In this document: positions 8,726 to 41,877 of the stretch, piece after piece | Layout: every line of letters starts with the position of its first letter | How positions within the stretch are numbered: position 1 is the first letter of the stretch | Assembly: GCF_020360975.1 (NCBI RefSeq) | Contig: NW_025408668.1 | Coordinates: 3,534,001 to 3,598,000, forward strand | Source: Hirsutella rhossiliensis | Lineage: Eukaryota; Ascomycota; Sordariomycetes; Hypocreales; Ophiocordycipitaceae | DNA: 64,000 bases | Direction: 5' to 3' | Position numbers and translations under genes: made by a program | Notes under the pieces: generated by a model | Told to the model about the DNA's origin: nothing | Databases searched by the model: none | What the model saw: the letters and a program-made list of their open reading frames with translations, nothing else

Positions 8726-8726
8726 T

Positions 8727-10346: not shown

Positions 10347-10379
10347 CGAAAATCGCCGTCAGGAGCGCGCAAAGGCTGA

Positions 10380-13880: not shown

Positions 13881-14000
13881 AGTCGGAGAGAGTGGAAAGT
13901 GTTGGTGAAATGGGTCGGATGGATAGGTCCGACGTGGGAGCCAGTCAAGTACGTCGCAGACACAATAGCACTGGCTAGGTATGAAGAAGTTCATGGGAAA
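13880..14000 (+). CDS. Chromovirus 1 integrase C-terminal chromodomain
   Basis: In the frame of 13839-14060, VLVKWVGWIGPTWEPVKY and ALARYEE (13899-13989) form the second half of a chromodomain. The first half, VEEILDRKK-like, lies just upstream in a different frame, so one further indel separates them. Chromodomains on integrase direct insertion to modified-histone chromatin; this one marks the element as a chromovirus. Confidence 0.8.
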
Positions 14001-14032
14001 GTTGGATCGAAACCACCCCAATCGAAACGATC

Positions 14033-14055
14033 GAAACGGGGAGGGGAGGGGTTAT
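14033..14055 (+). other. Polypurine tract of chromovirus 1
   Basis: A purine-rich run (AAACGGGGAGGGGAGGGG) ends a few bases before the 3' LTR at 14056, the standard position for plus-strand priming. Confidence 0.8.
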
Positions 14056-14244
14056 TGTAACGGGCTGAGCCCGTGAGGGTCTCGGCTCCGCTCTCGACAA
14101 GACCCACCGGAGCTCCGCTTATAAGCTCGTGCCATCTTCGAGAGCTTTCCTTTCTTTTCTTTTCTTCTTCTTTTCTCCTTAGCTTTAGGATACTCGTCGC
14201 AGTCGCTCAGCTAGTTGTCAACACACTCAGTTGAGACCGTTACA
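14056..14244 (+). repeat. 3' LTR of chromovirus 1
   Basis: This 189-bp copy appears identical to 8537-8725, starts TGTAACGG, ends CCGTTACA and is followed by the TCCAC target duplicate. It now lies 90 bp upstream of the CinA-gene ATG and could act as its promoter. Confidence 0.95.
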
Positions 14245-14334
14245 TCCACTCTCATCTTTTGCCTCTGAAATTCTATAAACTTCTATTGCTGTTTTAATGA
14301 ACACCAAAGGTTTTCTTACCCTCGTTCCAGCAAC

Positions 14335-15530: not shown

Positions 15531-17085
15531 ACGTGCCTCTGGTCCCTCAGCTCCTCCCCCCACCTTTTATAAGGCCCCTTGTTATTAGTCGCTGCTGCCC
15601 CCCTCTTGCCCGTGACCTCGACTCCCCCGCATCGCTATCGAGCCAGCGCAACGTCTCCTCGACAGTCCTCTTACTTAATACCTCGAGCCTGGCCTACGCG
15701 GCAGTTATCTCCTCGGGGACCCGGTTGCCTACTAAGTCTCTCTCCCGCACCTTAGACACGAGCATAATGCTATCTAGCGTTCGGTAGCGCGATAGCTATA
15801 TATATAAGCTATACGGATTATATTGCGCGGGCACGACCCTTCTATCGACCTTTATCGTCTATATCCCTCGTAGCTTAAGGGCTATATAATTTAGTATTCT
15901 ACCCTATACCTTATAATCTATATACGCGAAAGCTACTATATATAGTAAACCCTTCTAGCTAACGTCGTTCTACTACTATAGTTGCTTTCGTTAGTAATAT
16001 ATCCTAACGCTTATTAGCGTTAATAGGATCGTGCCTAGCGATATCCCTACTAAGCGGAGGTCTTTTATCGTTGCTAATATTAGAATTATCCCCGCTAGCG
16101 GCCTAAAGTAAATTATTATATTAGCTAAGATCTAATACCTTAGGCACGCCTTATCGACGATAACCTCTACTACTAAGTAGCTAGCGCTATTTACTAGCTT
16201 TAGCCCTTAATAGGTATTATAGTTTATAATAGCCGGTATCTTAGGTATAAATATAAAGATAGCCGGTACTAAGATCGCGCTATCATCGACTTAGTTAAGT
16301 ATTATAATCGCTTTTTCCTTAGTCGGTAAGCTATCCTTTTACTTATACTTAGAGATAAAGATATATATTATTAACCGCTACTAGATCCGAAACGCTAAGC
16401 TTACCTCTATATTTAGGTTCTACCGGTTCCTATTTAGCGGCGTTACTATAGTAATACCTATCTCTTAAGGGATCCGCCTACCCTCCTAGTAATACCTTAA
16501 GTTAAGGAGGTCTAGATCTATATAGTCTTATACTAAACGGATCCGCCTTAGTAGCCCTTATAATTCTAGATTACCGGCGGCGCGTATTTACTTATTTAAT
16601 ATAACGACTATCGTAAATCTCTTTTATAGCGCGTGCGCTTTATTATACTAGTACCGCTACTTAGCCTTAAATAAGTTATCTACGTCCTATAAGGTAGCCG
16701 TACTTAGTAGGAGGATCGACCTCTCTTAGACTAGCCGGAACTACTAAAAGTCCCTATAAAAGAGGATAATAAGGATCCCTTTAAAGTCTTACTATAATCC
16801 GCGAAGTTAGTAGAGCTACTCGTTTATAGCGTATAGCGTCCGCGCTTTAAGTATACTTACTATTACGACCACGGCTACTAGGCCGCTAACGGTCGACCGC
16901 GTTAAGCATATAATACGGTCTAATAGATAAATAGTCGGTACGACTATCTAATAAATATAAGATCGAGGGGATCGTAAAGATCTAAGTAATCTAGGATTAA
17001 TAAGATTACTACGCTTTATACGATCTAATATTAGGAATTATAGCTAGGCCTATAATCTAAGGATAGTCTTTATAAGTATATATAG
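15530..17085 (-). pseudogene. RIP-damaged gene of unknown type
   Basis: The sequence changes from normal (15530-15790) to strongly RIPed at about 15790. On the minus strand one frame can be followed across the boundary, from about 16000 down to 15530. It is broken only by TAG codons (CAG or TGG changed by RIP) and contains KLRGI-TIKVDRR, AQYNPYSLYI and TVEETLRWLDSDAGES. The run of charged and hydrophobic residues looks like real protein, but I do not recognise a family. The plus-strand 84-aa frame at 15533-15787 is a shadow. It may be a transposon ORF or an ex-cellular gene whose 3' end escaped RIP. Confidence 0.4.
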
Positions 17086-17687
17086 CTACCTACTTTTACT
17101 CCTTTAAATAGATAGCTCGATAGCTTTTAATATAGATCTTTATTATAATTCTATCTTTAATTTTAATTACCTAGTTATAGTTTATAGTCTATAACCTCTA
17201 ACTTATTACTAATATAATATACTTATTATTACTTAGACCACGCCCTATTATATCTACTAATATAAACCCCTTAATAGGTTTATCCCTTAAGAATAATACT
17301 AGTCGTTATATATTAAAAGCTCTTATTTAGTATAATATTATATTACTCTAAGCAATATCGTAACTATTAATATACTTATATAGTAAGCTAGATTAACTAA
17401 TTTTAGAGCTACTATATTACCTTCGGATATAATACGCGAGATTATTACCCTTTAATATAAGGTATAGTTACTTAGGAACGGAGGAGGTAATAGATAAGTT
17501 AGGGACCTTAGAGAAGTAGTTAAACTAAAATAGCTAGGACTATTCGACGGTACTTATAGCACGCTTTAAGACTTTCTTACTTAACTTAAGGCCTATTACT
17601 AGTTTTACCTTATAAAACTCTTAGACCTAGTTAAAAAGGTACTTTATATAGGAAATTATTTATCTAGAATAGTACTTACTTAGTTTA
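17086..17687 (+). mobile_element. Partial second copy of the 501-bp-LTR gypsy family (LTR end plus leader/gag start)
   Basis: 17086-17310 is the reverse complement of about 17694-17930 (part of the 501-bp LTR). 17311-17687 is the reverse complement of about 41000-41376, the leader and gag start of the large element. So this is a plus-oriented LTR 3' part followed by the first 380 bp of interior, RIPed and cut off at 17687 by the LTR of the large minus-strand element. The two form a head-to-head inverted arrangement with arms of about 230 bp. Confidence 0.75.
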
Positions 17688-18188
17688 TATAACGACCGGT
17701 ATTATTCCTAAGGGATAAACCTATCGAGGGGTTTATATTAATAGATATAATAGGGCGTAGTCTAAGTAATAATAAGTATATTATATTAGTAATAAGTCGG
17801 AGGTCGTAAACTATAGACTATAACTAGGTAATTAAAATTAAAGATAGAATCGTAATAAAGATCTATATTAAAAGCTAAAGAGCTATCTATCTAAAGGAGT
17901 AAAAGTAGGTAGCTATATATACCTATAGCCCCCTTACTATAACGATATTACCTATTATATTTAGCCCGTTTAGTCTACTTAGTACTAATCTAGCTAATCT
18001 AACTAATTAAACTAATCGGTGCTTAGTTTACTTAGTATCGATCGTCCGATCTAACTAATCTAACTAATCCGTTACGTAACCTTTATATTAATAGTTCTTC
18101 CGTAGTCCGTAGCGCCTAGTACCCTATACTTCGACTATACGGCCTATATTCTAACCGTCTTCCCCTTATAGTTAGCTAGTTCGTAATA
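17688..18188 (-). repeat. 3' LTR (501 bp) of the large gypsy element, heavily RIPed
   Basis: It aligns end to end with 41377-41877. Termini are TATAACGACC..TTCGTAATA on the plus strand, that is TG..CA ends changed by RIP. A purine-rich tract (minus strand GGGAGGAGAGAATAA) abuts its right edge at about 18190-18205, fixing the orientation as minus. Confidence 0.8.
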
Positions 18189-24085: not shown

Positions 24086-25814
24086 TAGTTATAGCTTACC
24101 GTTTTTCTTTAAAATAAATATAACTAGATAGCTTACTTTAGATATTAATATTTATATATATCCTTTTTATAGATTCTTATTAAGGTAGTCGCGTAGCGTT
24201 TATAGTTGCTTTTCGTTTAAGTTATAGATTTTATAGAACGTTAGCGTTATTCTATCTTTAAGATAAATTTTATAGTCTTATTAGCTATATTTAGGTAACC
24301 CTATCTTAAGTTCTTCCTTAAAGAGTTTATTATATTTTTAGTATTCCTAAGGGATATTCTTTATTTTATCTTATAGGCTTTATTCTTTCTTTTAAGAGCT
24401 AGTTTCTCTTAACTTAAGCTCTTTATTAATTTATTTAAGGTCTTTCCTTAGAGTAGTAATAACTTTTTAGATCTTTATATTATATCCTTTATTTTATTTA
24501 TATCGGATACTAGGTTATATAGCCGTATTAGTTAGTATATAGGTCTTATTAGTCGATTTTATTATATCTATTAGTTTAGTTACTATTTTCGTTTATATTA
24601 CTAAAGCCTATAATAATTTACTTAAACGGTTATCCCTTTTATCTTATTTAGTAGCTAAATTATCGTAAAATCTTACTTTCTTTTAAATCTACTAGTCCTA
24701 GAAACTTATATCTTCGTTCTAATATAGCTAGCTAGTTTTCTAGTTAATTAGTAGGTTACTCTCTTATAGCTATAAAAGTCTTAATATAAGGTTATATTCT
24801 TTAATATCTATAATATTAAAGTTAACTTATTCGTCGTAGCCCTAGATATTAATATTAAGGTAATTAATCTCTATATTAATAATTCTATTATTATAGTTAA
24901 AGGCCTCTCCTTTAATATTTATAAGTTTATATAGATCTTTCTTATATCTCTATATAAGTTAGTAATAATTAACGACTTTAAGTAAAACGTAATTACCTAT
25001 TACGCTATAGTTTAAGAGTATACGCGTATAATATCCTATAATTTAGATATTTAATACTATTTAGTTACTATAGCTTACCGTTACTATATATAGGGTCCTT
25101 AGATCTTATTATATCGTGCTAGTCTATAGCCCTTTTATAGATAGCGTACCTCGTTTTTTACTTAGTCCTTATTTATTTTATTTAGGTATTCTTCTTTAAT
25201 TTATTATTAATATTATTTCTTTATATTTTCGTCGCGTAGTATTATATTAGGGCTTAAGAGACTAATTTCTTATAGCTAATCGAAGATTTCTTATTTCTTA
25301 ACGCTATATTATTTATATTATACTACTTTATAGTTAATTACGTACTATACTTTATAATTTTATTTGTTTTTATACTAAAGGTTAAGTTTTTATTCTATAT
25401 CTTTTTATTTTTTATATAGTATTTCTATATCGATTTTTCCTTAGTTAAATATAGCTTATAGCCTTCGTACGTATTACTAATAATCTTTTAGTATACTATT
25501 ATATCGTTTATACTATACTTATGCTTTTTTATATTTATAAACTCTATAGTTTAGGTATATATATTTATTATAATCTTCTTTATCGTATTTAACTTATTAC
25601 GTAAGTCTTTAAAAGATTAAGGGTTCGGATACCTTAAAGTAAGTAGCATTATACTATTCCTTTATTTTAGCGTATTTATAGATTTTATATATCTCTAAAA
25701 GATATCTCGTTAATAAACTATAATTATCGCGGTATTTAAGTAGCGTGCTATAATTAGGTTCTAATAATATAACTTAGTCGTTTAAGTAGCGTTAATCGAT
25801 TTTCTAGTAATCTA
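24085..25814 (-). pseudogene. Middle part of the large gypsy element (protease to RT start)
   Basis: At 24085-24160 the minus strand reads KGYI-ISKVSYLVIFILKKNGKL, the RIP-altered form of the gypsy RT entry motif (K-GYI..S.SP...V.FV.KK.GKLR). From 24.2 to 25.8 kb the sequence should cover the protease and the gag-pol junction, but no catalytic triplet can be read with confidence. Confidence 0.6.
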
Positions 25815-26000
25815 TATAAGAGTCTTTAACTATTGTGGGTTATGGGCTTAGGCTACGGCCCAAGCCGTGTAGTCACGTGCGGAGGGCCGGATCCCGCACG
25901 CATGTGTGCGGGCCAGCCGCGCATAGGAGAGCTCTGCATAGCTTATTAACATCATCCTACGGACGGCACCTGCGCGTACGCCTCTGCCTACTCCGTGATA
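25815..26000 (+). repeat. 5' LTR of chromovirus 2
   Basis: It starts TATAAGAGTC and ends CCGTGATA. It differs from the 3' LTR by transitions of RIP type (for example TTATTAAC against TTGTTAAC, GATA against GACA). It includes a palindrome-rich GC segment and ATAGCTTAT at 25938-25946. Confidence 0.88.
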
Positions 26001-26017: not shown

Positions 26018-27262
26018 ATGGATCTAATGGATGTCTCTCCGGAGAGGGCGCCTCCCCCTCGAGGAAGCACTCCGCCCCTCCCCGGACGGACAGGAAGTAT
26101 CGCAGCCATCCTGGAAGCGATTAGAAGCGCGACGGCTAGCGAGAAGGACGAGGTTCTCGCTGCACTAGGGGAGCCGTCGGCGAGACCGGCTTTGACCCCT
26201 ACGACCTCCGCAACGCCGGTTACGGCGGCGACACCACCGACGAGGAAGCCGCTCCCTTGGCCGACTTGGGACGGCAAGCCGGAGTCCTTTTACTTCTTCC
26301 TTAGCCGGCTATAGACGAAGTTTATGACCGACGAGAAATGGGGCCTAAATGGCTGTCGCGACATAGCGTGGTATTCGCTCCTCCACACGCTGCCGGAGCC
26401 CTAGATGCGGCGGATCTCCGGATTCTGGGATAAGGGCGGCCCCGGGGGCAGACGCGACCTATAAGACTTCTTCTAATACCTTATATATGCGTTCGGCAAC
26501 GTGCAGGAGCGGGAGAAGGCGTAAGATAGGCTGCGGACCCTTAAGCAGAGAGACGGATAAACCTTTAGCGAATTCCTTCCTAATTTCGAAGAGACGCTCT
26601 TACGGGCAGCGGGGACTACGGTGTAGGAAGACAGCGCGAAGCTTATATAGCTACGGAATTCGATCACGCCGGCCCTACGGGAGCTACTTATCCCCGTGAT
26701 TATGCCTACTAACTACGGCGAGTACGTGAGCCGGTTAATAAAGGTGGCTTAGGGCTACGAGCAGATGCCGCGTTTCTAGAAGCTCCGTAAGCGCACGCCG
26801 TATAGCGGCGACGGGATTACCGCCCCTCCGTAAGATAAATAACCGGCTATCGACACGGACGGGGATACCCTAATGTCGGCTACCCGCACGGACCGGGCTA
26901 GACGCGGTAAGAAGACGCCGTCGACTACCCCCTACACCGCCCCGCACTCTAAGTAGCGGGCGAAGTAAGTAACGAGCGAGGAAATCGGGAAGAGGAAAGC
27001 TAACGGCCGCTGCCTACGTTACGGAGCATCTACGTACTTTATATTAAAATGCCCCTTCCTTTTAGCTAAGCGGCCCGTGGCGGTTCGAGTAGCGAAGATA
27101 GAACCGCTCCTCGCCTTAGACGATGAGGAGGACTCCGCCCCCCTAGGCCCGGAGGAAAAGAGTAGCCTGAGTAAAGACGGGCCTCGAGCCCTAATTGCTA
27201 GCACCAGCAAAGGAGAAGGAAGAATTGTCCGCCCGTATGTAAGAGGAGCCACTTTAATATAG
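26018..27262 (+). pseudogene. Chromovirus 2 gag, RIP-interrupted
   Basis: ATG 26018 opens 99 clean codons (MDLMDVSPERAPPPRG...; PLPWPTWDGKPESFYFFLSR) ending at TAG 26312. The same frame continues through further TAG codons with KWGLNGCRDIAWYSLLHTLP, FGNVQEREKA and NYGEYVSRLIKVA, the capsid domain of gypsy gags. A zinc-knuckle-like RCLRYG..TYFILKCP near 27010-27060 has lost cysteines. The start lies only 7 bp after the primer site. RIP-type stops increase away from the 5' end. Confidence 0.75.
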
Positions 27263-27269
27263 GTTGTGA

Positions 27270-30200
27270 TTAATAACTCTGCCCGTCGCCGCCCTTATGA
27301 CGAGGGCTGCTAGTGCTACGCCGTAGTTAACGAGGCGCTTGCGCGAGAGATATAAGTGCCGGTAGAAAAGATCGCCCTGGCGAGTAAAGCGCGCCTTAGG
27401 CGCGATAGAGGTGCGGTAATTAGGGCATTACGTAGCTAGCTATGAGGTCGACGGTTGCTATGTTTATCGCCTATGTGATCCCCTAACTAGAGTTTCCCTT
27501 AATCCTCGGGAAACCCTGGTTATTATATATAGAGTTATACTCGGTTCCGTACTAGAGGAAGCTATGGTTTAGGCCTACGTAACGGTGGGTCCGCCACGAC
27601 GACGGTTCCGTAGGCGTGGGACTAGGCGTGCGAGCTTTATGCTCGGCATAAGAAGTCCTTGCCTCTATCTTTATAGGAACCGTGCGATGGGTAGAGCGGG
27701 GGCAGGGCCGGGCAGCGGCTGACGCAGCGGTCTGCGTAGTCAGCCTAGCGGACATCGATAAGGCCCTCCGGACGAAGAAGCCGAAGTCGCCCTCTAAGCT
27801 ACGGCAATAGATACCGGAGCGCTTTCACGACCTCCTGCCGCTATTCGAGTCCTAGGAAGCGGATAAGCTTAACCCGTATAAGCCGGGGGTAGACCATAGG
27901 ATCGTACTCCGCACCGATAAGAAGGGGCAGGAACTGCCCGCACCGTTCGGACCGCTATATAGTATATTACACGCGGAGCTGCTGGTGCTAAAGAAGACGC
28001 CAGGGACTCCTAGATAAGGGTTTTATTTAAGCAAGCAGCTCCGGCAGGAGCGCCGGTCCTATTCGTGCGTAAACTAGGGGCGGGATACGGTTCTATCAGC
28101 TCGGATACGCTCCGTAACCTTTCGAAGGCGAAGTGGTTTACGAAGCTTAATATAAAATAGGCGTTCTATAAGGTACGGATCTCGGAGGGTGACGAGTGGA
28201 AGACGGCGTTCCGTATACGCTACGGCTTATTCGAGTGGCTTATAACGCCCTTCGGCCTCTTAGGAGCGCCCGCCACCTTCCAGCGTTATATTAACAACGT
28301 ACTTCGGGACTTCCTTAATAAGTTCGCCTCCGTATACGTAGATAATATCCTTATCTATACGAGCGGCTCCTACGAGGACTATATACGGAAAGTGCAGAGG
28401 GTCCTAGAGCGCCTCTAACTTTATAGGCTCTACCTCGACCCGGATAAGTGCGAATTCGGTTAAGAGGTTATACTTAGCTTTATTATCTACGTAGGCGCAT
28501 ATAAAGCGGACCCTGTAAAGATCTAGGCGATTCGGGACTAAGCTGCCCTAACTACGTAGATAGGCGCGGAGCTTCCTTAGGTTCGCGAACTATTATAGGA
28601 TGTTTATGCTTCTCCCGTATTATAATGCCCTTAAACGAGATTACCGGGAAGCGGACCGCCTTTCGCTAGGGGCCCGTATAGGAAGGAGCGTTCTATACGC
28701 TTAAGGACCTATTCTCTTAAGCCCCGGTGCTACTCTAGTAGGACTTCGACCGGTCTACGTTAGTTAAAGCGGACTATAGCGGCTAGGCACTCGGAGGAAC
28801 GCTCTCCTAGGAGGTAGACGGGCGGAAGCAACCGGTGGCGTTCCACTCCCGCAAGCTAACCCCAGCGGAGCGGAATTACGCTATTTACGATAGGGAGATG
28901 CTAGCGATTATTAGCTGCCTCGAGCAATGGTAAGCGGAGCTCCGGAGCTATAAGAGCTTCGAGGTTCTTATAGACTATAGGAACCTCGAGTACTTTATAA
29001 CTCGCTAGCACCTCTCGGAGCGGCAAGCCCGCTAGGCGGAGTATCTCTTACGCTTTAACTTCTCGATTAAGTACCGCCCCGGGCGGGACTCCGCGGTCCT
29101 AGACGCGCTTTCCCGGAGGGATCAGGACCGGCCGATAGGAGCGGACATCGAGGCCCGGGATCTATAGCTTATCCCGCAGGAAGCACTACGGACTTATATA
29201 GGAGCTTCCCTAGTAGAGGAAGACGCGGTGCTAGCGAATAAGCTTCCCCCCGCGCCCTTGCCTCGGTCCGGCGAGGAGGGATAGACCGGCCCGGGGGCGC
29301 GCGCGGCGAGAGTGTTCTAAGATGAGGCCCTTTAACGCTTATGGGATAGGATGGCGGCCCTAGACCGCACCTACGAGGGCGTGCGCCGCGCCGTTGAGTC
29401 CGGCGCTCGACGCCTAGATCCGAAGCTAAAGCTAAAAGTATAGGTGGCCGACTGCTATATCGACCTACGGGGGCATCTACGCTAGCGGGGGAGACTATAG
29501 GTACCGGGCGCACCGTATACCACGGAAGCTAAGGAGAAGGAGGGACCGCCGGAGCTAGACGAACGGAACGAGCTCCGAGGGAGGCTAGTCTAACTTATCT
29601 ATGACTCTAGCGTCGTAGGTCACCTAGGCAGATAGGGCACAGCAGCAGGCCTTGCGAGGGACTTTTACTAGCCCCTCCTATAGCACCACGTTCGTCGCTT
29701 CCTCCGTAACTACGATATCTACGGCCGCACGAAGATCTAGAGGGCGTAGCTTAAGGGGCTGCTTAAGCAGCTTCCGGTGCCCGACCGGTTCTATACGTAT
29801 ATATAGATAGACTTTATAACGGACCTCCTACTTATAGAGGGCGGCAACCGCTATATATAGGTAATTAAGGACCGACTTAGTAAGTCTATAGTATTAGAGC
29901 CGATGCCGTCTATAGTGGCCTATAACTAAGTAGACTAGGACCGGTAGCTCCCCGCGGCCTAACTTACGTTAAATAGTAGACTATATACCTTTATTAGGAT
30001 GGCCCCTTTCTTTGCAACGCATAGCTTCGAACCACCCTTACTAGCTCCCTTTACCGTAGACGTGGCAGCGGAGCAGTATAGTAATTCGTTACCGGAGGGC
30101 CGCGCCTCCGCGTTCGTACGAAAGCTATAGGAGACCATAGATTATTGCTAATCCGCGATGGCCGCCGCGGCGTAAGATTAGGAGCGGCACGCTAATAAGA

Positions 30201-30720
30201 CTAAGGCCCTAGCAAATAGGTTCGCGGCAGGAGATAAGGTATAGCTAGACCTCCGTAACTATAGGTCGGCACGACTAAAGAAGAAGCTTAACTAGCTATA
30301 CGCGAAGTTCACGGTGCGGAGGGTTATTAGCCCGTAGGTTATAGAGCTCGATAGTCTCCTAACGGGGGTCTATAATAAGATCAACGTAGACCTCCTTCGT
30401 AGAGCCTCCTCTAACCCGCTGCCCGGATAAGAAGCAGCGGACGCCTAACCGCCCGCAATCGAGGTAGAGGGAGAGGACGAGTTCGAGGTCGAAGAGATAC
30501 GGGCCGCGCGATAGAAAAAGGTCGGTAGGGGGAAACGCCGGGAGGTCCTCGTTAAGTGGCGCGGGTATCTCGACCCTACGTAGGAACCCGTACGTGAGTT
30601 TGCGGGAACCGCAGCCCTCGATAAGTTCAAAGCCTTATTCGGAACGGTAGACGAGAACGACGGACTAGCGGACCACCGATAGTAGCCCGGGCTAGGACCA
30701 CGAAGTAGGCAAAGCGGAGT
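27270..30720 (+). pseudogene. Chromovirus 2 pol (protease, RT, RNase H, integrase, chromodomain), RIP-interrupted
   Basis: Readable landmarks on the plus strand: [20 protein letters not shown] at about 28195-28255; RT box YVDN at 28335-28346 (Asp to Asn by RIP); RNase H near 28740-29100; the integrase zinc region near 29620-29730 and core near 29800-30000; and a chromodomain with EVLVKWRGYLDPT at about 30540-30580. A short deletion removes the FCVDYRGLN block near 28080, where LFVRKLGAG runs straight into SSDTLRNL. Tens of TAG codons replace Gln and Trp. The element is dead in cis. Confidence 0.85.
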
Positions 30721-30772
30721 AGGTAGTCACGATAACGCGAGCGCAATTATATAAGCGGAGATAAAAACAGCG

Positions 30773-30778
30773 TTTATT
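30773..30778 (-). terminator. AATAAA polyadenylation-type signal for the antisense frame
   Basis: On the minus strand AAAATAAACG occurs 30 bp after the stop codon at 30808, a suitable place for a fungal 3'-end signal. Confidence 0.4.
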
Positions 30779-30807
30779 TTAGGGCGGAGCCCCTAGACTA
30801 CCTAGAC

Positions 30808-31716
30808 CTACTCCTCGTCCTTATCGTCGTCCTTATCCTTATCCTCGTCGTCCTCCTCCACCTTATTAGCGGCGGCGGCGCTCTCTAGGGCGCTTAGGCG
30901 GCCCTCTAGGCCCGCGAGCCAGTCGGCGGCAGCGGCGGCTCCGGGGGCTCCGGGGCGGGGCCCGCCAGCAGCAGCGGCGGGGGCGGCGGGCACGGCTATA
31001 GGGACCGCCGATAGGGCGACGGAGGCAGTGTCCCTAGTGCCGGGAGAGTCAGTAGCGGAAGCAGAAGAGCTAGATAAGAGGAACTTACTTAGGGACGAGG
31101 CCCTAGCGCTCGAGGGCGCGGAGATTGCGGTAGGCGGCGGCGGCGGCGGTGAGGCGCTTCTTGGCAGCCCCCCGTGCCTGCCCGTGCGCGCCGGCCTTCT
31201 AAGCCGACGCCGCAGCGAGCAGGACGGGAGGCGCCGCCTCATAGGCGCGGCCGGCACGCGCGCACTAGTAACAACTGCCGCCACGGCGGCGCCCGACTTG
31301 GTCGGCGTAGGGGAGCTCCTACGACGCGCACCGCACATAGGGGGCCGCGCGGGCGGCTCCGGCCTGCACTTGGCGTTTGTGCTTTGAGAAGTTAGCGGAA
31401 AATGGCCACCACGCTCGCTAGGCAGCGGACTTACGGGGGTGGCAGTGGCGGAGGCGGGGGCGGAAGGGCCGGGCGTCACGGCCGGCGGCGGGGACGGCGT
31501 CGTTACCCGGAAGGGCGACGTGAGGGCGGCCAGCGCAGCGGAGGCAGAGGCGGCGGCGGTGGGCGCGGTCGCGGGGGCGCGGGCAGGAGCAGCGGCAGCG
31601 GCGGAGCCGTCGTCGGCCGTGCCCAGCACGGCGTCGACGAACGACTCCGCACGCTCCGAGAAGGAGGAAGCGGGGGAGGGGGAGGCAGATATGTCTATCG
31701 CGGAAGTCAGCATCAC
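30808..31716 (-). CDS. Antisense ORF inside chromovirus 2: Ala/Pro/Ser-rich protein with coiled coil and acidic tail
   Basis: A 302-codon frame runs opposite to gag-pol between pol and the 3' LTR. The N-terminus (MMLTSAIDISASPSPASSFS, ERAESFVDAVLG) is followed by Ala/Pro/Ser-rich sequence, an Arg-rich centre, a short predicted coiled coil (WLAGLEGRLSALESAAAANK) and an acidic tail of D/E/K (last 17 residues). It has no Trp in its central part and few Gln codons, so RIP would rarely create stops; an intact frame is therefore weak evidence of selection. Around 31080-31260 another minus frame with TAG codons also looks protein-like, so the ancestral frame may differ there. Upstream promoter signals and a downstream AATAAA support a transcription unit. 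Function unknown; no similarity to retroviral proteins recognised. Confidence 0.5.
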   Translation of the reverse strand: MMLTSAIDISASPSPASSFSERAESFVDAVLGTADDGSAAAAAPARAPATAPTAAASASAALAALTSPFRVTTPSPPPAVTPGPSAPASATATPVSPLPSERGGHFPLTSQSTNAKCRPEPPARPPMCGARRRSSPTPTKSGAAVAAVVTSARVPAAPMRRRLPSCSLRRRLRRPARTGRHGGLPRSASPPPPPPTAISAPSSARASSLSKFLLSSSSASATDSPGTRDTASVALSAVPIAVPAAPAAAAGGPRPGAPGAAAAADWLAGLEGRLSALESAAAANKVEEDDEDKDKDDDKDEE

Positions 31717-31898
31717 GGATTGCGGCCTCCCGCTCTATAGGGCGGAGAACTTACTAGTTAAAGTTGTTGTTGTTGGGGCTATTGTTGCTGCTGCGGCTGT
31801 TACTGCGAGCACACGTTAATAAAGCGGCCCGCATAGCTAGGAACGAACTAACGCCCTAGGTAGAGCGGAACTTACCTATTGCTACTACTGCTGCGGTT

Positions 31899-31954
31899 AA
31901 AGAAGAAGGAGAAGGAAAGGAAGGAGGAAGGGGGGGATGCCGCCTTATATACCC
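31899..31954 (-). promoter_or_regulatory. Antisense promoter in chromovirus 2: TATA box and pyrimidine tract
   Basis: On the minus strand GGGTATATAAGG (31954-31943) is followed by about 38 bases of nearly pure C and T (31936-31899), the usual layout of fungal start regions. The antisense ATG lies about 180 bp further on. A GTAAGT donor at 31875-31870 with several CAG acceptors before 31790 allows a 5'-UTR intron. Confidence 0.5.
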
Positions 31955-32248
31955 CTAGGTAGAGGAGGCTGCCTAAGGCCGAGGGGACGGGCAACCTAAG
32001 GCTTACGTAGGTCCGGGCCGGCCGCCGGCTACCTAGGGGCGCATATAATAGGTTGCGCCCCTATTTAAACGGCCAGCCGGCCGATAAGTATGGAGCCCGG
32101 TTCCGGCTGCCCGCTAATAGGCGGGGACACAGGCTAGTAGGGCCAGCACGATTAACGGAAAAGGGCAGGGTGGAGCTAGCGGCACGGGCCCTATAGTGCG
32201 GAAGCCGTTAATAGGGCAACGCCGCGCCGCGCTCGAGGGAGGGCATTG

Positions 32249-32434
32249 TATAAGAGTCTTTAACTATTGTGGGTTGTGGGCTTAGGCTACGGCCTAAGCC
32301 GTGTAGTCACGTGCGGAGGGCCGGATCCCGCACGCATGTGTGCGGGCCAGCCGCGCATAGGAGAGCTCTGCATAGCTTGTTAACATCATCCTACGGACGG
32401 CACCTACGCGCACGCCTCTGCCTACTCCGTGACA
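32249..32434 (+). repeat. 3' LTR of chromovirus 2
   Basis: 186 bp, nearly identical to 25815-26000, ending CCGTGACA and followed by ATCTA. A short purine tract (GAGGGAGGG, about 32235-32243) precedes it. Confidence 0.88.
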
Positions 32435-33702: not shown

Positions 33703-33904
33703 TGTAGGAATGTATCTATCTAGTGGTGTGACCAACCATGGTTGGCACGTGACCCGTACGGTCACGTGTGCGGCTGAGGGCAGCGTGCCCCCTTTCTCCA
33801 CGCTGGCCTCTGCCTCCTTAGATAGAGAATCAAGACGAATACAACATCACAGGCTAACCCTAGTACCGTCTCATTGCAGCAGCTGCCGCAGGTGCCTACC
33901 CACA
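33703..33904 (+). repeat. 5' LTR of the nested copia element
   Basis: It runs TGTAGGAATG...CTACCCACA and contains two copies of a CACGTG-type core within ACCATGGTTGGCACGTGACC and GGTCACGTGTG, a possible bHLH/bZIP-type binding palindrome. Confidence 0.95.
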
Positions 33905-34348
33905 CTGATCAGTGACCGGCCCACGCCCGTCACAGACAGCTAAGTAGAAGAGACAAATTCTCAACCTTCGAAGGTGCTATAGTCCGCGTCACTTTACTGT
34001 GGCCCTGAGTAGCGCTCAGAAGAAGGTTATTTGTGCTAAGAACAAGGAATCTCCCGCTGGTTTGCCCAGCCGCGCGAGAGTCCTTCCAACTGTTGATTAC
34101 GATCGCCCGCTAGTTTGCCTAGCCGTGAGCACCGGAATCGACAGGCGACCACATCGCAAACAACTAGTAAGAACGTTCGACCCTTGACGTTAAGTAGCAA
34201 GATCCCCGTCAGTTCAGTCTGGCCGCGAACGACCTACTTAGTACGCGACGCTCGACCTCCTATTAGCGACAACTCGTATACGAAGAGACCAATACGAACC
34301 CCACATCGTCTCATTCATTTGATCACGATAGCCCTGACCGCCCGAGCT

Positions 34349-35248
34349 ATGTCCCCAGAAGCCCAGCTCGAAGAAATATGCGACCAGATGCAGGCACTAG
34401 ACATCCAAGCATCCGCATTCCGACAAATTAATATCGACCTTTGGGACAACGATATCACACACGACGAAAAGGACAAGATCGCAGTAACGACATATGTGGC
34501 AAAGTTCATATTCATCGTTCAATCTGGCAGTGATCAAGGATACGACCTCCTTGGTTACTTCCAACAGCATTTTGAAGAATGGACCGAAGACACATGGGAC
34601 CGCGCCCCGAATGAATACAAGAGAGCCCTCAGGAAACTACTAAGGAAAGAGGTATCTACACAGGTTCACAAAGGGGAAATTGCAACACAATTTCTCATAT
34701 TACAAACTATCGAGAACCCACAAACCTGGCCAGAGCAGGAGTTTACGGAGATGGTGTTTGATGAGAGGACTGCTGCCTTCAGGAGGCAGACAGCATTACT
34801 AGGATCAAATGCTTCCACTAATCCCCATCCGTCTCAACCTCCTTCACCATCAGTTACGCCCTTAGCAGCACCTCATCAAGGTCTTAACGAACCACAACCT
34901 ATTAAGACCCTAACGAGCCCTCCTAACGCACCTACTCCTGCTCCGACTATCCAAGATAAACCTGCTCCGACCTCTCTTACTATTCATCCGACTTCCTACC
35001 GCTTCCAGAACCCCGATCTCGTCCAACCCGTCACCAACCCCATCCCCGAACACTTATCCGGCCCTGCAACCTTTGGAGAATACATGAAACTCCCCCCGGA
35101 TAACATCCCGAACGCTATCGTCGATAGCGACATCCAGCAGAAGTTTATGAAGACCTGGAACAAAGATCGGAACTACACAGGAGAGCCGTACGATCTCCTT
35201 GATGATAAGCTCCGCCTCTTCTTAGCAACTGCTCTCATATCCAAGTGA
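34349..35248 (+). CDS. Copia gag-like protein, 5' part
   Basis: From ATG 34349 (MSPEAQLEEICDQMQALDIQ) 299 codons are open to TGA 35246-35248. The N-terminal part is acidic and helical, with a Pro/Ser/Thr-rich linker (residues about 150-215). The C-terminal part (FGEYMKLPPDNIPNAIVDSD...DKLRLFLATAL) resembles the capsid start of fungal copia gags. The protein continues in other frames after 35248, where FDKLQLCQRALGR and a zinc knuckle are found. The frame is open upstream to 34115, but the first ATG with coding-like sequence is 34349. Confidence 0.7.
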   Translation: MSPEAQLEEICDQMQALDIQASAFRQINIDLWDNDITHDEKDKIAVTTYVAKFIFIVQSGSDQGYDLLGYFQQHFEEWTEDTWDRAPNEYKRALRKLLRKEVSTQVHKGEIATQFLILQTIENPQTWPEQEFTEMVFDERTAAFRRQTALLGSNASTNPHPSQPPSPSVTPLAAPHQGLNEPQPIKTLTSPPNAPTPAPTIQDKPAPTSLTIHPTSYRFQNPDLVQPVTNPIPEHLSGPATFGEYMKLPPDNIPNAIVDSDIQQKFMKTWNKDRNYTGEPYDLLDDKLRLFLATALISK

Positions 35249-35249
35249 A

Positions 35250-36050
35250 ACCGTCACAATTTCACGCACTCTTTCCCGGATCCTGATGGAAGAGCCCAAA
35301 GATTCTATCTTGATAAGATCACATGGGCTACGACGTTCCGACAAGCGTATGATATCTTCAAACAACACTTTGACACGGAAGTCAACCATGTCCACTACCA
35401 TACTGACTGGACAACAATAACCTTTAACTCCATCCGTGCCCAAGATGCTTCGAAGACCCCCCACGAAGTGCTTCAAACCCTCTTTGATAAGCTTCAGCTC
35501 TGCCAACGAGCCCTTGGCAGGAGTACGGAGGAGACCTTCTACTGCGTACAACGCTTATGAAAGCATGCCGTGGAGTACCCGAACTCCAATACGCTCTTTT
35601 CAAACCCGCCGATAACGTCGAGCACCTTCTGCAGATCTTCGTGCATCCGTTGAAACCCATCTTGCCCTCATAACAACTTCTCAATTTCCCTTGACTTTGC
35701 TGGATCATTTGATCATAACGATCCACACCATCAGTACTACCTCGACCGTCGATACAATAACAACCGCTCGAGGTAGATACGGATATTCAGGTCAACGACC
35801 CAGCCGCGGATACAGACAAAGCTACAACCGTGGAAACTACCGGCCTCAAAGCCGTAGTAACTACAATCATAGCTACAGTAACCGAAACTGGACGAAGAAG
35901 TGTTTTGTTTGTGGACAAGAAGGCTGTTGGTCAACTAAACACTCTACGGATGAACGGCAAAGGCCAAGGACCAACATATCACTCAATGTCACTTCATAGG
36001 TGTACAACTCACGGACATCGGAGGCTATATTCTAGACTACGAAGGTCATG
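35250..36050 (+). pseudogene. Copia gag C-terminus with zinc knuckle, frameshifted
   Basis: Pieces of capsid lie in two frames at 35260-35560. At about 35893-35980 the frame starting 35691 gives a Gly/Arg/Tyr/Asn-rich RNA-binding-like stretch and then KKCFVCGQEGCWSTKHSTDE, the zinc-knuckle variant seen in fungal copia elements. Several indels break continuity. Confidence 0.65.
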
Positions 36051-36052
36051 AG

Positions 36053-36433
36053 ATGAGCAGCTTTGATGACACTGAAGATACATGGGAAGAACATGACAAT
36101 AGCACCAACGATCACCCGGAACAATGGCAAGCAAGCCAAATGCTCTGTCAACAGGCATTCAATCATTTGATCACAGGAGAAGACGTCTATCAGACGGATC
36201 AAACCGTTGTTCCAGCCTCGCAATTTATTATTGAAGATCGCTATTCAAGGGATAGATTCCAAGGTATCATGATCGACACAGGTGCAGCAACATTTTCCAC
36301 AGCAGGATACTCTCAGTACATCGCCCTACAACGAGAAGACCCTTCTGTAGCTCTCGACAGCTCCACATCCGGCCAGGCCTCCATCAAATTCGGCAACAGC
36401 GACGCCATCCACCCTCGGCACAGTCGCCCTTAA
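36053..36433 (+). pseudogene. Copia aspartic protease region
   Basis: The frame contains RFQGIMIDTGAATFSTAGYS: the catalytic D-T-G lies at residues about 75-77, followed by the copia-type STAG..Q segment. The frame is lost at 36433, shortly before the C-terminal strand of the protease; the next frame begins with a LADMDRLGIYFNN segment. Confidence 0.7.
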
Positions 36434-36483
36434 CACACCCTCGGAAGGATCACGTTCCACGTCCTTCAAACCCCAACTCCCTT

Positions 36484-37386
36484 TTGCTCTGCCTTGCTGA
36501 TATGGACCGGCTTGGTATCTATTTCAACAACATCACAGATACCATCAATTGTACTAATCATTGTACTAATCGCCCTACAAGCATTCCAGTCGTACGCAAA
36601 TGGGGACATCCCTGGTTCTTCCTTACGAAAGATGAAGAGTCCATCTCGTTTCTTACGGAAACAGAGATTCGTACACTTCACCGACGCTTTGGACACCCAG
36701 CAGTCCCTAGGCTCCATCACCTCTTGAAGCAAGCCGGGCACAGTGACGTCTCGATAGACACATTAGAGACTATCTCTAAGTTCTGTCACCACTGTCAAAT
36801 GCACTCACAAGCCCCACGCCGCTTCAAGTTCACCCTTAACGATGATCAAGAGTTCAACTACGAAATCATCGTTGATGTGATGCACCTAGGAACACCACAA
36901 CGCCCTGTTCTACACGTTGTGGACTCAGCTACTGCTTTCCAAGGAGCCAGATTTTTACCGTCAATGTCAGCTAAAGATACATGGGAGACCCTCCGGACCC
37001 TCTGGATCGACACGTATCTTGGACCTCCTGATACCCTCCGTCATGATGCAGGAACTAACTTTGCTTCTCTCGAATTCCGGAACGAAGCAAAGATTATGGG
37101 AATCAAATGCTCTCAAGTACCTGTTGAGACGCATTGGTCCATTGGAAAGATTGAACGCTATCACGCACCCCTCCGACGCGCCTTTAACATCCTCCATGCT
37201 GAGATTGGCCACACCACTTCCGCCGAAACAGTCCTTCAAATGGCTGTTAAAGCAATCAATGATACGGCAGGACCTGACGGTCTTGTGCCTACGTTGCTTG
37301 TTTTCGGCGCATACCCTCGCGTATCTACAGACTTGCCCCTTCCGCTTCTACCCTCAAAAGATCGGAAGCTATGCAGAAAGCGATGA
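36484..37386 (+). CDS. Copia integrase
   Basis: 300 codons containing the pre-integrase zinc site (H66, H71, C101, C104: LHRRFGH...CHHC) and the DDE core with D131 (IIVDVMHL), D188 (LRHDAGTNF) and E224 (IGKIERYHAP). Length and motif spacing are normal. The C-terminal part continues in another frame at 37400-37640. Role: insertion of copia cDNA. Confidence 0.85.
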   Translation: MLCLADMDRLGIYFNNITDTINCTNHCTNRPTSIPVVRKWGHPWFFLTKDEESISFLTETEIRTLHRRFGHPAVPRLHHLLKQAGHSDVSIDTLETISKFCHHCQMHSQAPRRFKFTLNDDQEFNYEIIVDVMHLGTPQRPVLHVVDSATAFQGARFLPSMSAKDTWETLRTLWIDTYLGPPDTLRHDAGTNFASLEFRNEAKIMGIKCSQVPVETHWSIGKIERYHAPLRRAFNILHAEIGHTTSAETVLQMAVKAINDTAGPDGLVPTLLVFGAYPRVSTDLPLPLLPSKDRKLCRKR

Positions 37387-37779
37387 AAATGCTCCGCCAA
37401 CTCTCGGCAGAAAGACGAGTTAAGGATGCCCTCCATGCACGCAACGGCCCGAGCACGACAGAAGTGCTATCCCTCCCGCTGCAAAGTGAAGTTCGCGTTT
37501 GAGAGAGAAAGACGGTTGGCAAGGACCCTTCAAGATTGCATCGATTGATACCCATAACATCACCATTGACACAGTCAACGGCCCCAAGTCTTTCGATCGA
37601 CCCTTGTACAACCGTATCTGCGTGATGATACCACTCTTTCCGACCCTACACACGACACAGACCCTCAGGCATTCGTTCAGATCTTAATGAACAACCGGCT
37701 CAAGACCCCGTTAAGACCCTAACGGACCTGCCTGCCCGACCCGAACCCCGCCCCCGCAAGAGAGGACGCCCACCAGGAT

Positions 37780-38630
37780 CAAAGAACAAGCCAAAGGATT
37801 TGATCATGATGGCCCAAGCCGTAGACCGAGCTTGACCCAAAAGGAGGAAGATGCACAAGCTCTTTCCTCAAGCTACGGTCTGATGGCATAATCACCTCTC
37901 CTGGTGACCCTTCGAAGAATCCGATAACAAAGAGATTACTGACCTCGTTGGCCGCGGTGTATTCCAATTTGAACGATACGATCAAATGAGTCATGGAAAC
38001 TATAGAATCTTTCGCTCTCGAATGGTTCGTGAAGTCAAAGGAATCAACACTAAGCCCTACGAAAAGTCTCGACTTGTTATTCAAGGACATAACGACTTTG
38101 AGAAGACCACCCTCCTGACGCAATCTCCGACAATTCAACGCGTTAGCCAGAGACTCATCCTCGCTATTGCCCCCGGACTTCTTCAAAACTACGGCATAAC
38201 CCTCTCCTCCGTGATATCACTCAGGCATACCCGCAATCCCAGACCAAGCTTTCCGGACCATTCTTACGTATTTGCCCACGGAACTACAAGGCAAATACCC
38301 TAACGGAACAATTATTCGTGTTATTAAGCCCCTGTACGGTATCGCAGAAGCCGGAGTCCATTGGTTCCGCACATATCAGCAGCATCACCTCGAAAAGCTG
38401 GATATGTCTACCTCCACCTATGACTCCTGCCTACTGATTTCGAATACTGGCCCTGACACGCTCGGTATTGTTGAATGCAAACTGATGACACCCTCATCCT
38501 TGGAACGAACAACTTTTCTACCCGTGAAGAAGAAGAGCTACAAAGGCAGAATTTCGTTCCAAGCCCAAGACTGACATCACATACGGAACAACGGTTGACT
38601 TTAATGGTGCAAGACTGACGTTGCTGAATA
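37780..38630 (+). pseudogene. Copia reverse transcriptase, frameshifted
   Basis: Fragments in different frames: the segment from 37986 (FRSRMVREVKGINTKPYEKS, RLVIQGHND), then ANGTIIRVIKPLYGIAEAG-like sequence at about 38290-38400 and an active-site box at 38484-38489. The box reads Q-T-D-D in the correct frame rather than the usual Y/F-V-D-D; the two aspartates are kept. At least three frameshifts. Confidence 0.75.
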
Positions 38631-39458
38631 ATAACCCCTTAAGAAAGGATCCCTTTACTTCAACAGAAGGGACAAGCAGCAAAATGACCACCATTGACCC
38701 TAAAGCAATTGATCGTCACCAGCGCTACGTTGAGGAACGAGCGCGAGCCTCATACATTGCTTCAATTGCTCAACCGGAAGCTTCTTTCGATGTTTCAGTC
38801 GCCGCCCAAGTACAGACCCCTGAGGATAAAGATTACGCAATTTTGAACAAGCGACTGCAATGGCAAATGGATCACCAACTACGTGGCCTCACGTACAAAC
38901 CAATTGATCTAGCTACTGCAAAGCTGATGGTTTTCACCGATGGTTCTTTCGCAAACAACAAGGACTTATCCTCCCAACTAGGATTCGTCATTGCCCTCGT
39001 TAACGAGACAAACCACAAAGAAAAACAGTTCGAGATTAGTGGTAACATCGTACACTGGAGTTCAACAAAGTGCAAACGTGTTACCCGTAGCGTCCTAGCA
39101 TCAGAGATCTACGGTATGGCCAACGGATTCGACATAGGCATCTCCCTTGCGATGACTATGAAGATAATTACGGAACGACTCAACCTTCCTCCTATCCCTC
39201 TCATCGTCTGTACGGATTCGTACTCTCTACGAATGCCTAGTCAAGCTCGGTACGACGAAGGGAAAACGATTGATGATTGATATCATGGCCCTTCGCCAGT
39301 CATACGAGAAGAGAGAGATAACAGATATTCGTTGGATCAACGGCGCAGACAACCCAGCAGATGCAATGACGAAAGCATCACCAAACCGAGCCCTGGAACG
39401 CTTCATCGATACCAATAGTCTGACAATTCGAGTCGAAGGATACGTACAACGTTCCTAA
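38621..39458 (+). pseudogene. Copia RNase H, two overlapping frames
   Basis: 38621-39280 contains KLMVFTDGSFANN (first catalytic Asp, residue 107), LASEIYGMANG (Glu) and IVCTDSYSLR (Asp). A frameshift near 39265-39280 moves into 39270-39458, which carries ITDIRWINGADNPADAMTK, the fourth acidic site of copia RNase H. One indel separates the two. Confidence 0.8.
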
Positions 39459-39495
39459 CCGCTCCTTATACCTATGATCAAATGATTGCTCCTAT

Positions 39496-40461
39496 CAGGA
39501 AGACAGACTTGCAAATAGATAAATCAAATCAAATCCGGGGTCCAATTTGATTTGATTTGGATAGCAAAATCATGGATCTGATTTGATTTGATTTGATTTG
39601 AATCGATTTGGATCTCATTTGGATATCTGGATAGCCCCACTTTTTTCCCACGACAAAATACATTGAGCCGCTCCTATACCTTAAGGTCCGCTTTGATAAG
39701 GTCCGCTTTGAGGCGGCCTCTCTGAGCTGCGGCCATCTGTCCGGCAAGGCTAAATATTCTCTCCGGCTCTGAAGACATCGCCGGAATGGAAAAGAGGTCG
39801 ATTGCCATTCGCGACAGGCGTGGATATTGGCGTCTGCGGAGAAGCCAGTACTGGATGGGATTGTCCACAAGACAATCGCCCGGATCGGTACTGCCCACCC
39901 ATTCTGCGTACTCGTCACGCATGGAGGACGGTGAGGGCGCAGGTTGGGCGCCAAGTTTCCTAATTGAGGTCATGAAGTCATCTAGGTCCGTTGTCTTCCT
40001 TGCAGCTGTGGGCTCCTCGGGTATCGTATCTTGCTCGACCGCGAGGGTTCGGTACTCCTCCCATATGCGCCATTGCAGCAGTCAAGTGCAGAGCTGTCCC
40101 ATTTTGGCCATCGGCTACAAATATCTCCCCCCGTAATATGGCAGATGCACCCAAAGATATATTTCACGATCAAACGTGTCAGGTAAAACACAAAAGAAAG
40201 CTTGGTGACACGGCCTGGAAAGCAACTGCCCGTAATTAGCGACCACTCTAGGCCAGGCAGGGCTGGCTCCCAAAACTATTGGCCCAGGTCGCCATTGTGG
40301 GGCGTATCCAAATAATCAGATATCCAAATAAATTTGGGTGTTGCGATTTGATTTGATTTGATTCAGCGCAGGGGCAATTTGATTTGATTTGATTTGGATT
40401 AATTTGATTTAATTTGATTTGATTTGATTATGATTTATCTATTTGCAAGTCTGCAGGAAGA
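39496..40461. mobile_element. Non-autonomous hAT transposon (950 bp) with 8-bp target duplication
   Basis: The element runs 39504-40453 with terminal repeats CAGACTTGCAAATAGATAAA at both ends, bounded by the 8-bp duplication CAGGAAGA (39496-39503, 40454-40461), which is diagnostic for hAT. Next to each end are arrays of AATCAAATC-type subterminal repeats, the kind of sites bound by hAT transposases. It interrupts the copia element downstream of RNase H, so it is the youngest insertion in the nest. Confidence 0.93.
39674..40090 (-). pseudogene. hAT transposase C-terminal remnant inside the 950-bp element
   Basis: The minus strand reads WRIWEEYRTLAVEQ, then DLDDFMTSIRKL, then the hAT dimerisation signature NPIQYWLLRRRQYPRLSRMA and IPAMSSEPERIFSLAGQ. 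Only the C-terminal 130 or so residues remain; the BED finger and catalytic core are absent. The element therefore needs transposase in trans, and the remnant shows it derives from an autonomous parent by internal deletion. Confidence 0.88.
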
Positions 40462-40567
40462 CCCCTTCACTTCTTCCCAGATATCTACAGCTAAGAACAA
40501 GACGTCGGACCCACTTTTTGGCAATAATGACACACGCCCCTCACGGCACATAAAGAAGAGTTGCCTG

Positions 40568-40769
40568 TGTAGGAATGTATCTATCTAGTGGTGTGACCAA
40601 CCATGGTTGGCACGTGACCCGTACGGTCACGTGTGCGGCTGAGGGCAGCGTGCCCCCTTTCTCCACGCTGGCCTCTGCCTCCTTAGATAGAGAATCAAGA
40701 CGAATACAACATCACAGGCTAACCCTAGTACCGTCTCATTGCAGCAGCTGCCGCAGGTGCCTACCCACA
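40568..40769 (+). repeat. 3' LTR of the nested copia element
   Basis: 202 bp, identical by eye to 33703-33904, preceded by a short purine tract (AAAGAAGAG) and followed by GTTAT. Confidence 0.95.
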
Positions 40770-40774
40770 GTTAT

Positions 40775-41376
40775 CTTAATTAAGCTTTAAGGTAACTTAT
40801 CGGAACTTCGTAGTATAATCCGATACTAAGATCCTTTATTAAAGTTCTCGAAGTTTTTATTTAGCTTCTTATTCCTTATTAGTTATTCTAAATACCTTCG
40901 TAATAGCTTCTTTAAATCCTTAGAAACTAGTAAAGACTTTATCTATCTTATTATCTTATCGCGCTAATTAGTTATTAAGAAAGTCCCTTATAATAGGTCT
41001 AAACTAAGTAAGTACTATTCTAGATAAATAATTCCCTATATAGAGTACCTTTTTAACTAGGTCTAAGAGTTTAATAGGGTAAAACTAGTAATAGGCCTTA
41101 AGTTAGGTAAGAAAGTCTTAAAGCGTGCTATAAGTACCGTCGAATAGTCCTAGCTATTTTAGTTTAACTACTTCTCTAAGGTCCCTAACTTATCTATTAC
41201 CTCCTTTATTCCTAAGTAACTATACCTTATATTAAAGGGTAATAATCTCGCGTATTATATCCTAAGGCGATATAATAGCTCTAAAGTTAGTTAATCTAGT
41301 TTACTATATAGGTATATTAATAGTTATAATATTGCTTAGAGTAACGCGGTATTATACTAAATAAGAGCTTTTAACG
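40775..41376 (-). pseudogene. Leader and gag start of the large gypsy element
   Basis: This RIPed sequence continues the host element after the copia insertion and matches the plus-strand copy at 17311-17687 in reverse complement. The primer-binding site lies at 41366-41374: AGCTTTTAA (plus) pairs with TTAAAAGCT at 41557-41565 in the adjacent LTR, so this family too could self-prime. Confidence 0.6.
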
Positions 41377-41877
41377 TATAACGACCGGTATTATTCCTAA
41401 GGGATAAACCTATTAAGGGGTTTATATTAATAGATATAATAGGGCGTAGTCTAAGCAATAATAAGTATATTACGTTAGTAATAAGTCGGAGGTTATAGAC
41501 CGTAGACTATAACTAGGTAATTAGAATTAAAGATAGAATTATAATAAAGATCTATATTAAAAGCTAAAGAGCTATCTATTTAAAGGAGTAAAAGTAGGTA
41601 GCTATATATACCCGTAGCCCCCTTACTATAACGATATTACCTATCGTGTTTAGCCCGTTTAGTCTACTTAGTACTAATCTAGCTAATCTAACTAATTAGA
41701 CTAATCGGTGCTCGGTTTACTTAGTATCGATCGTCCGATCTAACTAATCTAACTAATCCGTTACGTGACCTTCGTGTCAACGGTTCTTCCGTGGTCCGTA
41801 GCGCCTAGCACCCTATGCTTCGACCATGCGGCCTGTATTCTGACCGTCTTCCCCTCACGGTTGGCTGGTTCGTAATA
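41377..41877 (-). repeat. 5' LTR (501 bp) of the large gypsy element
   Basis: Collinear with 17688-18188. The first 385 bp are RIPed, but the last 115 bp (from about 41765, CCTTCGTGTCAACGG...) keep CpA and TpG, so the RIP edge falls inside the LTR. Confidence 0.8.

What the first reader, a model, noticed from the sequence alone, without database searches (positions are those of the whole stretch)
30768..31954. Antisense gene with its own promoter inside a chromovirus
Between pol and the 3' LTR, chromovirus 2 carries about 1.5 kb that gypsy elements normally lack. On the strand opposite to gag-pol there is a TATA box (31943-31954), a 38-base pyrimidine tract, a 302-codon frame (30808-31716) ending in a coiled coil and an acidic tail, and AATAAA 30 bp after the stop. 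The block is hardly RIPed while pol next to it is full of RIP stops. An accessory protein encoded antisense could regulate the element, for example by binding Gag or by making antisense RNA over pol. Caution: the DNA is very GC-rich, several frames are open by composition, and few Gln/Trp codons make the frame insensitive to RIP.
Basis: partly seen in the sequence, partly recalled or inferred. Interest (0 to 1): 0.8.

Follow-up and report, generated by a model that had tools for sequence, protein, structure and literature searches.

The report
Spliced antisense gene in fungal retrotransposon
A fungal jumping gene carries an extra gene written on its opposite strand, apparently cut into pieces by introns and kept under selection for its protein; similar antisense extras are known in a few other retrotransposons, but what this one does is unknown.

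Summary
The window is from the nematode-parasitic fungus Hirsutella rhossiliensis. The block is RIP-mutated in most copies examined; the spliced frame has four TAG stops in the window copy. Gag-pol is nearly identical in the two subfamilies where compared, while the stretch from just after pol to the middle of the LTR differs: gene and U3 were probably exchanged as one cassette. Antisense accessory genes are known (Boty brtn, Grande gene23, Retand). New here, as far as I could search, are the introns, an orphan protein and the linked cassette. Expression was not tested. Most likely role, inferred: a regulator of the element.

The parts
25813..26000 (+). 5' LTR (188 nt; ends RIP-mutated)
   Evidence: the five differences from the 3' LTR in the 184-nt alignment are all CA/TG against TA, i.e. 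RIP type
26018..30682 (+). gag-pol remnant with many stops; RNase H, integrase zinc-binding and chromodomain pieces recognisable; lacks about 220 nt (near 29,910) that other copies have
30712..32341 (.). 3' cassette that differs between subfamilies A and B: antisense gene, its upstream region, PPT-like tract, U3 part of the LTR
   Evidence: 69 fixed transversions inside (eight A, two B copies), none in the aligned pol tail (about 29,500-30,711) and none in the LTR after 32,341
31945..31951 (-). antisense TATA box (TATATAA)
   Evidence: kept in 40 of 40 copies aligned
31899..31937 (-). 39-nt pyrimidine tract after the TATA box
31803..31875 (-). intron 1 (73 nt, GTAAGT...TTAAC...CAG), probably in the 5' UTR
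   Evidence: donor GTAAGT in 64 of 68 copies
31755..31802 (-). exon 2; the protein start may lie here or just after intron 2; no ATG at the assumed start in any of 68 copies
31435..31694 (-). exon 3, Ala/Pro/Ser-rich
31382..31434 (-). intron 3 (53 nt, GTAAGT...CTAAC...AAG)
   Evidence: donor GTAAGT in 51 of 68 copies
31089..31381 (-). exon 4 in the spliced frame; four TAG stops in this copy; omega 0.21 between subfamilies
31262..31330 (-). Cys motif CX6CX11CX2C (the second Cys is Tyr in the window copy)
   Evidence: all four Cys read in e.g. L002 and L046
31034..31088 (-). intron 4 (55 nt, GTAAGT...CTGAC...TAG)
   Evidence: donor GTAAGT in 63 of 68 copies; junction consistent with annotated protein P0001
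30808..31033 (-). exon 5: Ala-rich stretch, short coiled coil (about 30,924-30,883), acidic tail (30,861-30,811), stop
30773..30778 (-). AATAAA polyadenylation-like signal
32235..32243 (+). polypurine tract just before the 3' LTR (by eye)
32247..32434 (+). 3' LTR (188 nt)

Best explanation
The block is an antisense accessory gene of a Ty3/gypsy chromovirus, with its own TATA promoter next to the 3' LTR, four spliceosomal introns, and a polyadenylation signal just short of the end of pol. It encodes a protein of roughly 260-280 residues: a low-complexity Ala/Pro/Ser-rich N-terminal part, a CX6CX11CX2C motif that may bind zinc, a short coiled coil and an acidic tail. Because the introns lie on the strand opposite to the genomic RNA, they are not removed during retrotransposition, so the gene can keep them. 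The protein was under purifying selection while the element spread; afterwards RIP broke the copies examined. Most likely role (inferred, not shown): a nucleic-acid or Gag-binding regulator of the element itself, perhaps of the U3 promoter with which it is inherited. Shown by computation: intron motifs, frame constraint, intron/exon rate contrast for introns 3 and 4, presence near pol in 39 of 40 scored copies, linkage of gene and U3. Inferred: transcription, splicing, zinc binding, nuclear or regulatory role.
For: Four GTAAGT donors on the antisense strand, none on the sense strand; shuffles give a mean of 0.18, with 0 of 2000 reaching 4. Three full introns (donor, branch, acceptor) against a shuffle mean of 0.012 and a maximum of 1 in 2000. 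Removing introns 2-4 joins frames in phase up to the same C-terminus. Introns 3+4 have 22 of 108 sites fixed different, exons 60 of 807, P = 8.6e-5. Exon indels: 8 of 11 shared ones are multiples of 3 against 11 of 47 private ones (Fisher P = 0.003); the 5 found in at least 4 copies all are. Annotated protein P0001 of the same genome reads across the intron 4 junction predicted here.
Against: No transcript evidence. No ATG at the assumed start in any of 68 copies; an in-frame ATG just after intron 2 is seen in L002, L003 and L039, so the start is unsettled. The transversion-only test was not decisive (12 synonymous, 25 nonsynonymous; 0.32 against 0.255 expected). Only exon 4 has the usual GC order at codon positions (exon 3 0.69/0.81/0.85, exon 5 0.83/0.56/0.76). 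Exon 5 alone is weakly constrained (omega about 0.6). Three shared exon indels are not multiples of 3 (2-3 damaged copies each). Introns 1 and 2 are not faster than exons (2 of 73 and 3 of 60). P0001 skips part of exon 4 and has another N-terminus; whether RNA supported it is unknown. No homologue outside this genome (the first two scored only about 8000 candidates each), no Pfam, NCBIfam or PDB match (exon 4 piece only). Exons are triplet-repetitive, which favours multiples of 3 by slippage.
Confidence: 0.78

Rival explanations
1. One reading: an unspliced 302-codon antisense frame is the gene.
For: The frame exists and is longer than composition alone usually gives (1 of 1000 Markov sequences); it has few stop positions in exon 4 (3).
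Against: Stop-free and in phase in 2 of 68 copies; its middle part has omega 1.18 and a GC pattern unlike coding DNA; its ATG sits beside the branch motif of intron 2 and is present in 6 of 68 copies, absent for example in L035, L039, L050 and L064, where CTGAC remains.
Confidence: 0.06
2. A non-coding antisense RNA unit: a promoter that makes a spliced RNA controlling the element through double-stranded RNA; the open frames are a by-product of GC-rich composition.
For: TATA and introns are present; antisense transcripts are proposed to work this way in other elements (PMC7264820, passages).
Against: Protein-level selection in one specific frame, frame-keeping shared indels, higher divergence of introns 3 and 4. 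A transcript ending at AATAAA would stop before pol and overlap only the 3' part of the genomic RNA.
Confidence: 0.1
3. A host gene or another transposon inserted once and carried along without function.
For: Pieces were annotated as a protein of this genome (P0001) and fused to another gene (P0002) in the public annotation.
Against: An exon match lies near the pol tail in 39 of 40 scored copies, in two divergent subfamilies; selection on the frame. The P0002 fusion joins a separate gene family about 2.6 kb away.
Confidence: 0.06

Closest known systems
Boty / Boty-like retrotransposons of Botrytis cinerea with antisense gene brtn
   Same: Fungal gypsy element with a chromodomain and an antisense gene; PMC7264820 (section 5) places it between pol and the 3' LTR, and a passage of PMC4227169 lists CHROMO among Boty-like domains; passage of PMC8365987.
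   Different: The original paper (Zhao 2011) is not held and no brtn sequence could be compared, so homology and intron content are open. A passage of PMC4227169 names one version brtn-106.
Grande gene23, RIRE2, Retand antisense ORFs (plants)
   Same: Antisense gene between pol and 3' LTR; Grande gene23 has its own promoter and a nuclear protein (passages).
   Different: Plant elements, Retand stated to be non-chromovirus; most Retand clusters carry a TRP28 domain, none found here. The word intron does not occur in the two papers searched.
HTLV-1 HBZ / HTLV-2 APH-2 (retroviral antisense genes)
   Same: Antisense gene of a retroelement with a nuclear protein (passage of PMC11963269).
   Different: Different element class and protein; the HTLV antisense promoter lies in the 3' LTR (passage), the TATA here lies outside the LTR.
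crapaud of Podospora (U3 subfamilies)
   Same: Subfamilies differing mostly in U3; its authors discuss recombination during reverse transcription as one possible cause (PMC10787394 passages).
   Different: There the variation is described as mostly limited to U3; here the exchanged piece also holds an antisense gene. The term antisense does not occur in that paper's main text.

Membership tests
Chromovirus (Ty3/gypsy with chromodomain) | LTRs, RNase H, integrase, C-terminal chromodomain | tested here: met
   LTR pair; RT_RNaseH 3e-22; Integrase_H2C2 3.2e-4 and Chromo 1.2e-4, both below Pfam's curated cut-offs (21.2 against 25.5 and 22.4 against 25.1 bits) in damaged pieces. The gag piece had no Pfam match.
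LTR retrotransposons with antisense accessory gene (aORF-3R) | Coding region between pol and 3' LTR, opposite strand, in most copies of the family | tested here: met
   exon match near pol in 39 of 40 scored pol-tail copies.
LTR retrotransposons with antisense accessory gene (aORF-3R) | Own antisense promoter and transcript | not testable with these tools
   TATA box kept in 40 of 40 aligned copies; no RNA data.
Boty brtn | Protein homology to BRTN | not testable with these tools
   Paper not held, no sequence at hand; protein searches found only H. rhossiliensis proteins.
Retand TRP28 antisense proteins | Pfam PF04195 (TRP28) domain | tested here: not met
   No Pfam family up to E = 10.
Spliceosomal introns (fungal type) | GTAAGT donor, CTRAY branch, YAG-like acceptor, 50-75 nt (consensus recalled) | tested here: met
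   three meet the strict pattern, intron 1 has a TTAAC branch; intron 3 ends in AAG in the window copy.
Spliceosomal introns (fungal type) | Removal from a transcript | not testable with these tools
   No RNA data.

The most novel reading that the evidence does not exclude
The antisense gene and the U3 promoter form one exchangeable identity cassette, comparable in logic to a phage repressor with its operator: the protein recognises its own linked U3 (or its own RNA end) and so limits or assists only elements of its own type. Exchange of the whole cassette, with gag-pol left the same, would found a new subfamily that ignores the old one's regulator.
Probability: 0.15. Interest if true: 0.8.

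Novelty: new variant of a known kind. Interest (0 to 1): 0.52.

Why it matters
In the review passages seen the function of antisense accessory genes of LTR retrotransposons is called unknown. This one offers a family with at least 150 scored exon 4 matches in one genome (capped), a measurable selection signal despite RIP, introns that the antisense position protects from loss, and a recombination boundary that ties the gene to the U3 promoter. That makes a specific, testable suggestion about what such genes act on. It also shows how a frame-only reading of a RIP-mutated element can pick the wrong protein.

Tried and rejected
Transversion-only dN/dS over all exons gave a weak result; it was replaced by transversions plus non-RIP transitions, and both are reported. 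Four copies (L015, L056, L063, L066) were left out of the A/B counts as damaged or poorly aligned. The complementary sense frame also showed omega 0.51-0.57, but it has 6-8 stops in exon 4 in the four copies checked. Faster mutation of the block was considered as the cause of the A/B difference and rejected because pol has no fixed transversion over about 1.2 kb (single pairs differ by 3-4 in 843-1038 nt). Three protein searches found two annotated proteins of the same genome and nothing else. The query spans the pol end and so favours copies that keep it; I therefore count from the pol-only query. A structure prediction was not run: the input would have been a joined or re-coded frame of a broken copy.

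Papers: passages of PMC7264820 and PMC11963269 and section 5 of the former; passages of PMC8365987, PMC4227169, PMC5987419, PMC3248453, PMC10787394; other papers as search listings only.

Full report
What it lies in. The window belongs to Hirsutella rhossiliensis, an inference from two protein hits named for that species whose contig lengths (8,340,697 and 6,844,515) equal contigs C3 and C4 of the window's own assembly (taxonomy). The element runs from a 188-nt LTR at 25,813 to one ending at 32,434. Its sense strand holds RNase H, integrase and chromodomain pieces, with several stops per 300 nt in most bins of all three frames. The window copy lacks about 220 nt near 29,910 that other copies have.

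The observation. The claim that the block is hardly RIPed holds only in the sense that this is one of the least mutated copies: in 40 copies the block averages 0.85 on a RIP index where the pol tail averages 0.94; block below pol in 38 of 40.

Introns. On the antisense strand there are four GTAAGT donors, each starting a 53-73 nt stretch that ends in AG with a branch-like motif before it: 31,875-31,803, 31,754-31,695, 31,434-31,382 and 31,088-31,034. The sense strand of the same block has none; 2000 dinucleotide shuffles give a mean of 0.18 donors, at most 3, and at most one complete intron against three observed. Conservation among copies is partly shared ancestry and does not by itself show function.

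The spliced frame. In the window copy it is open in exons 3 and 5 and carries four TAG stops in exon 4. Across 68 copies, exon 4 has 11 stop positions in this frame: at 9 a codon that RIP can turn into a stop is seen in another copy, one is a stop in a single copy, and at 31,201 all 67 readable copies have a stop. Low-RIP copies show a CX6CX11CX2C motif (L002, L046). The start codon is unsettled: no copy has ATG at the assumed start, and L002, L003 and L039 have an in-frame ATG just after intron 2.

Selection. The 68 copies fall into subfamilies A (41 copies, the window's) and B (25), plus two outliers. Since RIP gives transitions at CpA and TpG and, by the look of these copies, CpG (rule recalled), I counted transversions and transitions outside those contexts. 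In the spliced frame there are 28 synonymous and 32 nonsynonymous differences (omega 0.41, P = 0.00055, L001 against L046; three other pairs 0.41-0.43). Four of the other five frames give 0.86-1.71; the complementary sense frame gives 0.51-0.57 but has 6-8 stops in exon 4. Transversions alone were indecisive. Introns 3 and 4 have 22 of 108 sites fixed different against 60 of 807 in exons (P = 8.6e-5); introns 1 and 2 are slow (2 of 73 and 3 of 60). Exon indels in more than one copy are multiples of three in 8 of 11 cases against 11 of 47 private ones; the five present in at least four copies all are. All of this rests on essentially one A/B split, so the pairs are not independent.

A cassette. 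Fixed transversions between eight A and two B copies number 69 in 30,712-32,341 and none in the aligned pol tail (about 29,500-30,711) or in the LTR after 32,341. In one B copy, the stretch from the LTR end into gag differs from the window by 1 transversion in 1,077 nt and middle pol by 1 in 726, while the U3 of its 5' LTR differs by 5. Of 68 copies, 39 carry A markers and 24 B markers in gene, spacer and U3 alike; three are typed at two of the three places and agree; the two outliers could not be assigned; none is mixed. The simplest reading, inferred, is one recombination, for example a template switch near the end of pol plus strand transfer at R, bringing gene and U3 together from a diverged relative.

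Prevalence. Of the 40 pol-tail matches of a pol-only query, 39 have a listed antisense exon match within about 1.3 kb (compared by eye); for the fortieth, on C20, the match runs past the pol end to the equivalent of 30,800. In one search, 40 of 40 matches reach 30,792 or beyond, but that query spans the boundary and so selects for it.

What it does. The protein has no relatives that I could find. A regulatory role is inferred from known antisense genes of retroelements and from the linkage to U3. It could act on transcription, on RNA packaging with Gag, or on silencing. The evidence does not choose between these.

Novelty. The arrangement is known: Boty brtn in a fungal chromovirus and several plant families. 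In the listings I saw no report of a multi-intron antisense gene in a fungal LTR element or of its exchange together with U3; the key Boty paper is not held, so this is a limited statement.

Noticed in passing
window 8537-14245: A gypsy element with LTRs identical over 190 nt and open RT/RNase H and integrase frames; 77 nt separate its integrase ORF from the 3' LTR, so no antisense block.
   Followed up: partly
window 33703-40769: A 7-kb element with LTRs identical over 202 nt and a frame with weak gag_pre-integrase/rve matches, below Pfam cut-offs; its last ORF of 200 aa or more ends about 1.3 kb before the 3' LTR.
   Followed up: no
window 60050-62668: 872-codon open frame on the minus strand with alpha-L-rhamnosidase domains.
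   Followed up: no
G000:C4:3257805-3261558: Public protein P0002 looks like a false fusion of a GCR1_C/NDC10_II gene (Crypton-like by recall) with exon 3 of the antisense gene about 2.6 kb away; that other gene has dozens of matches in this genome.
   Followed up: partly
window 41000-41877 and 17076-18188: Repeat pair at 92-93% identity, partly inverted and partly direct.
   Followed up: no
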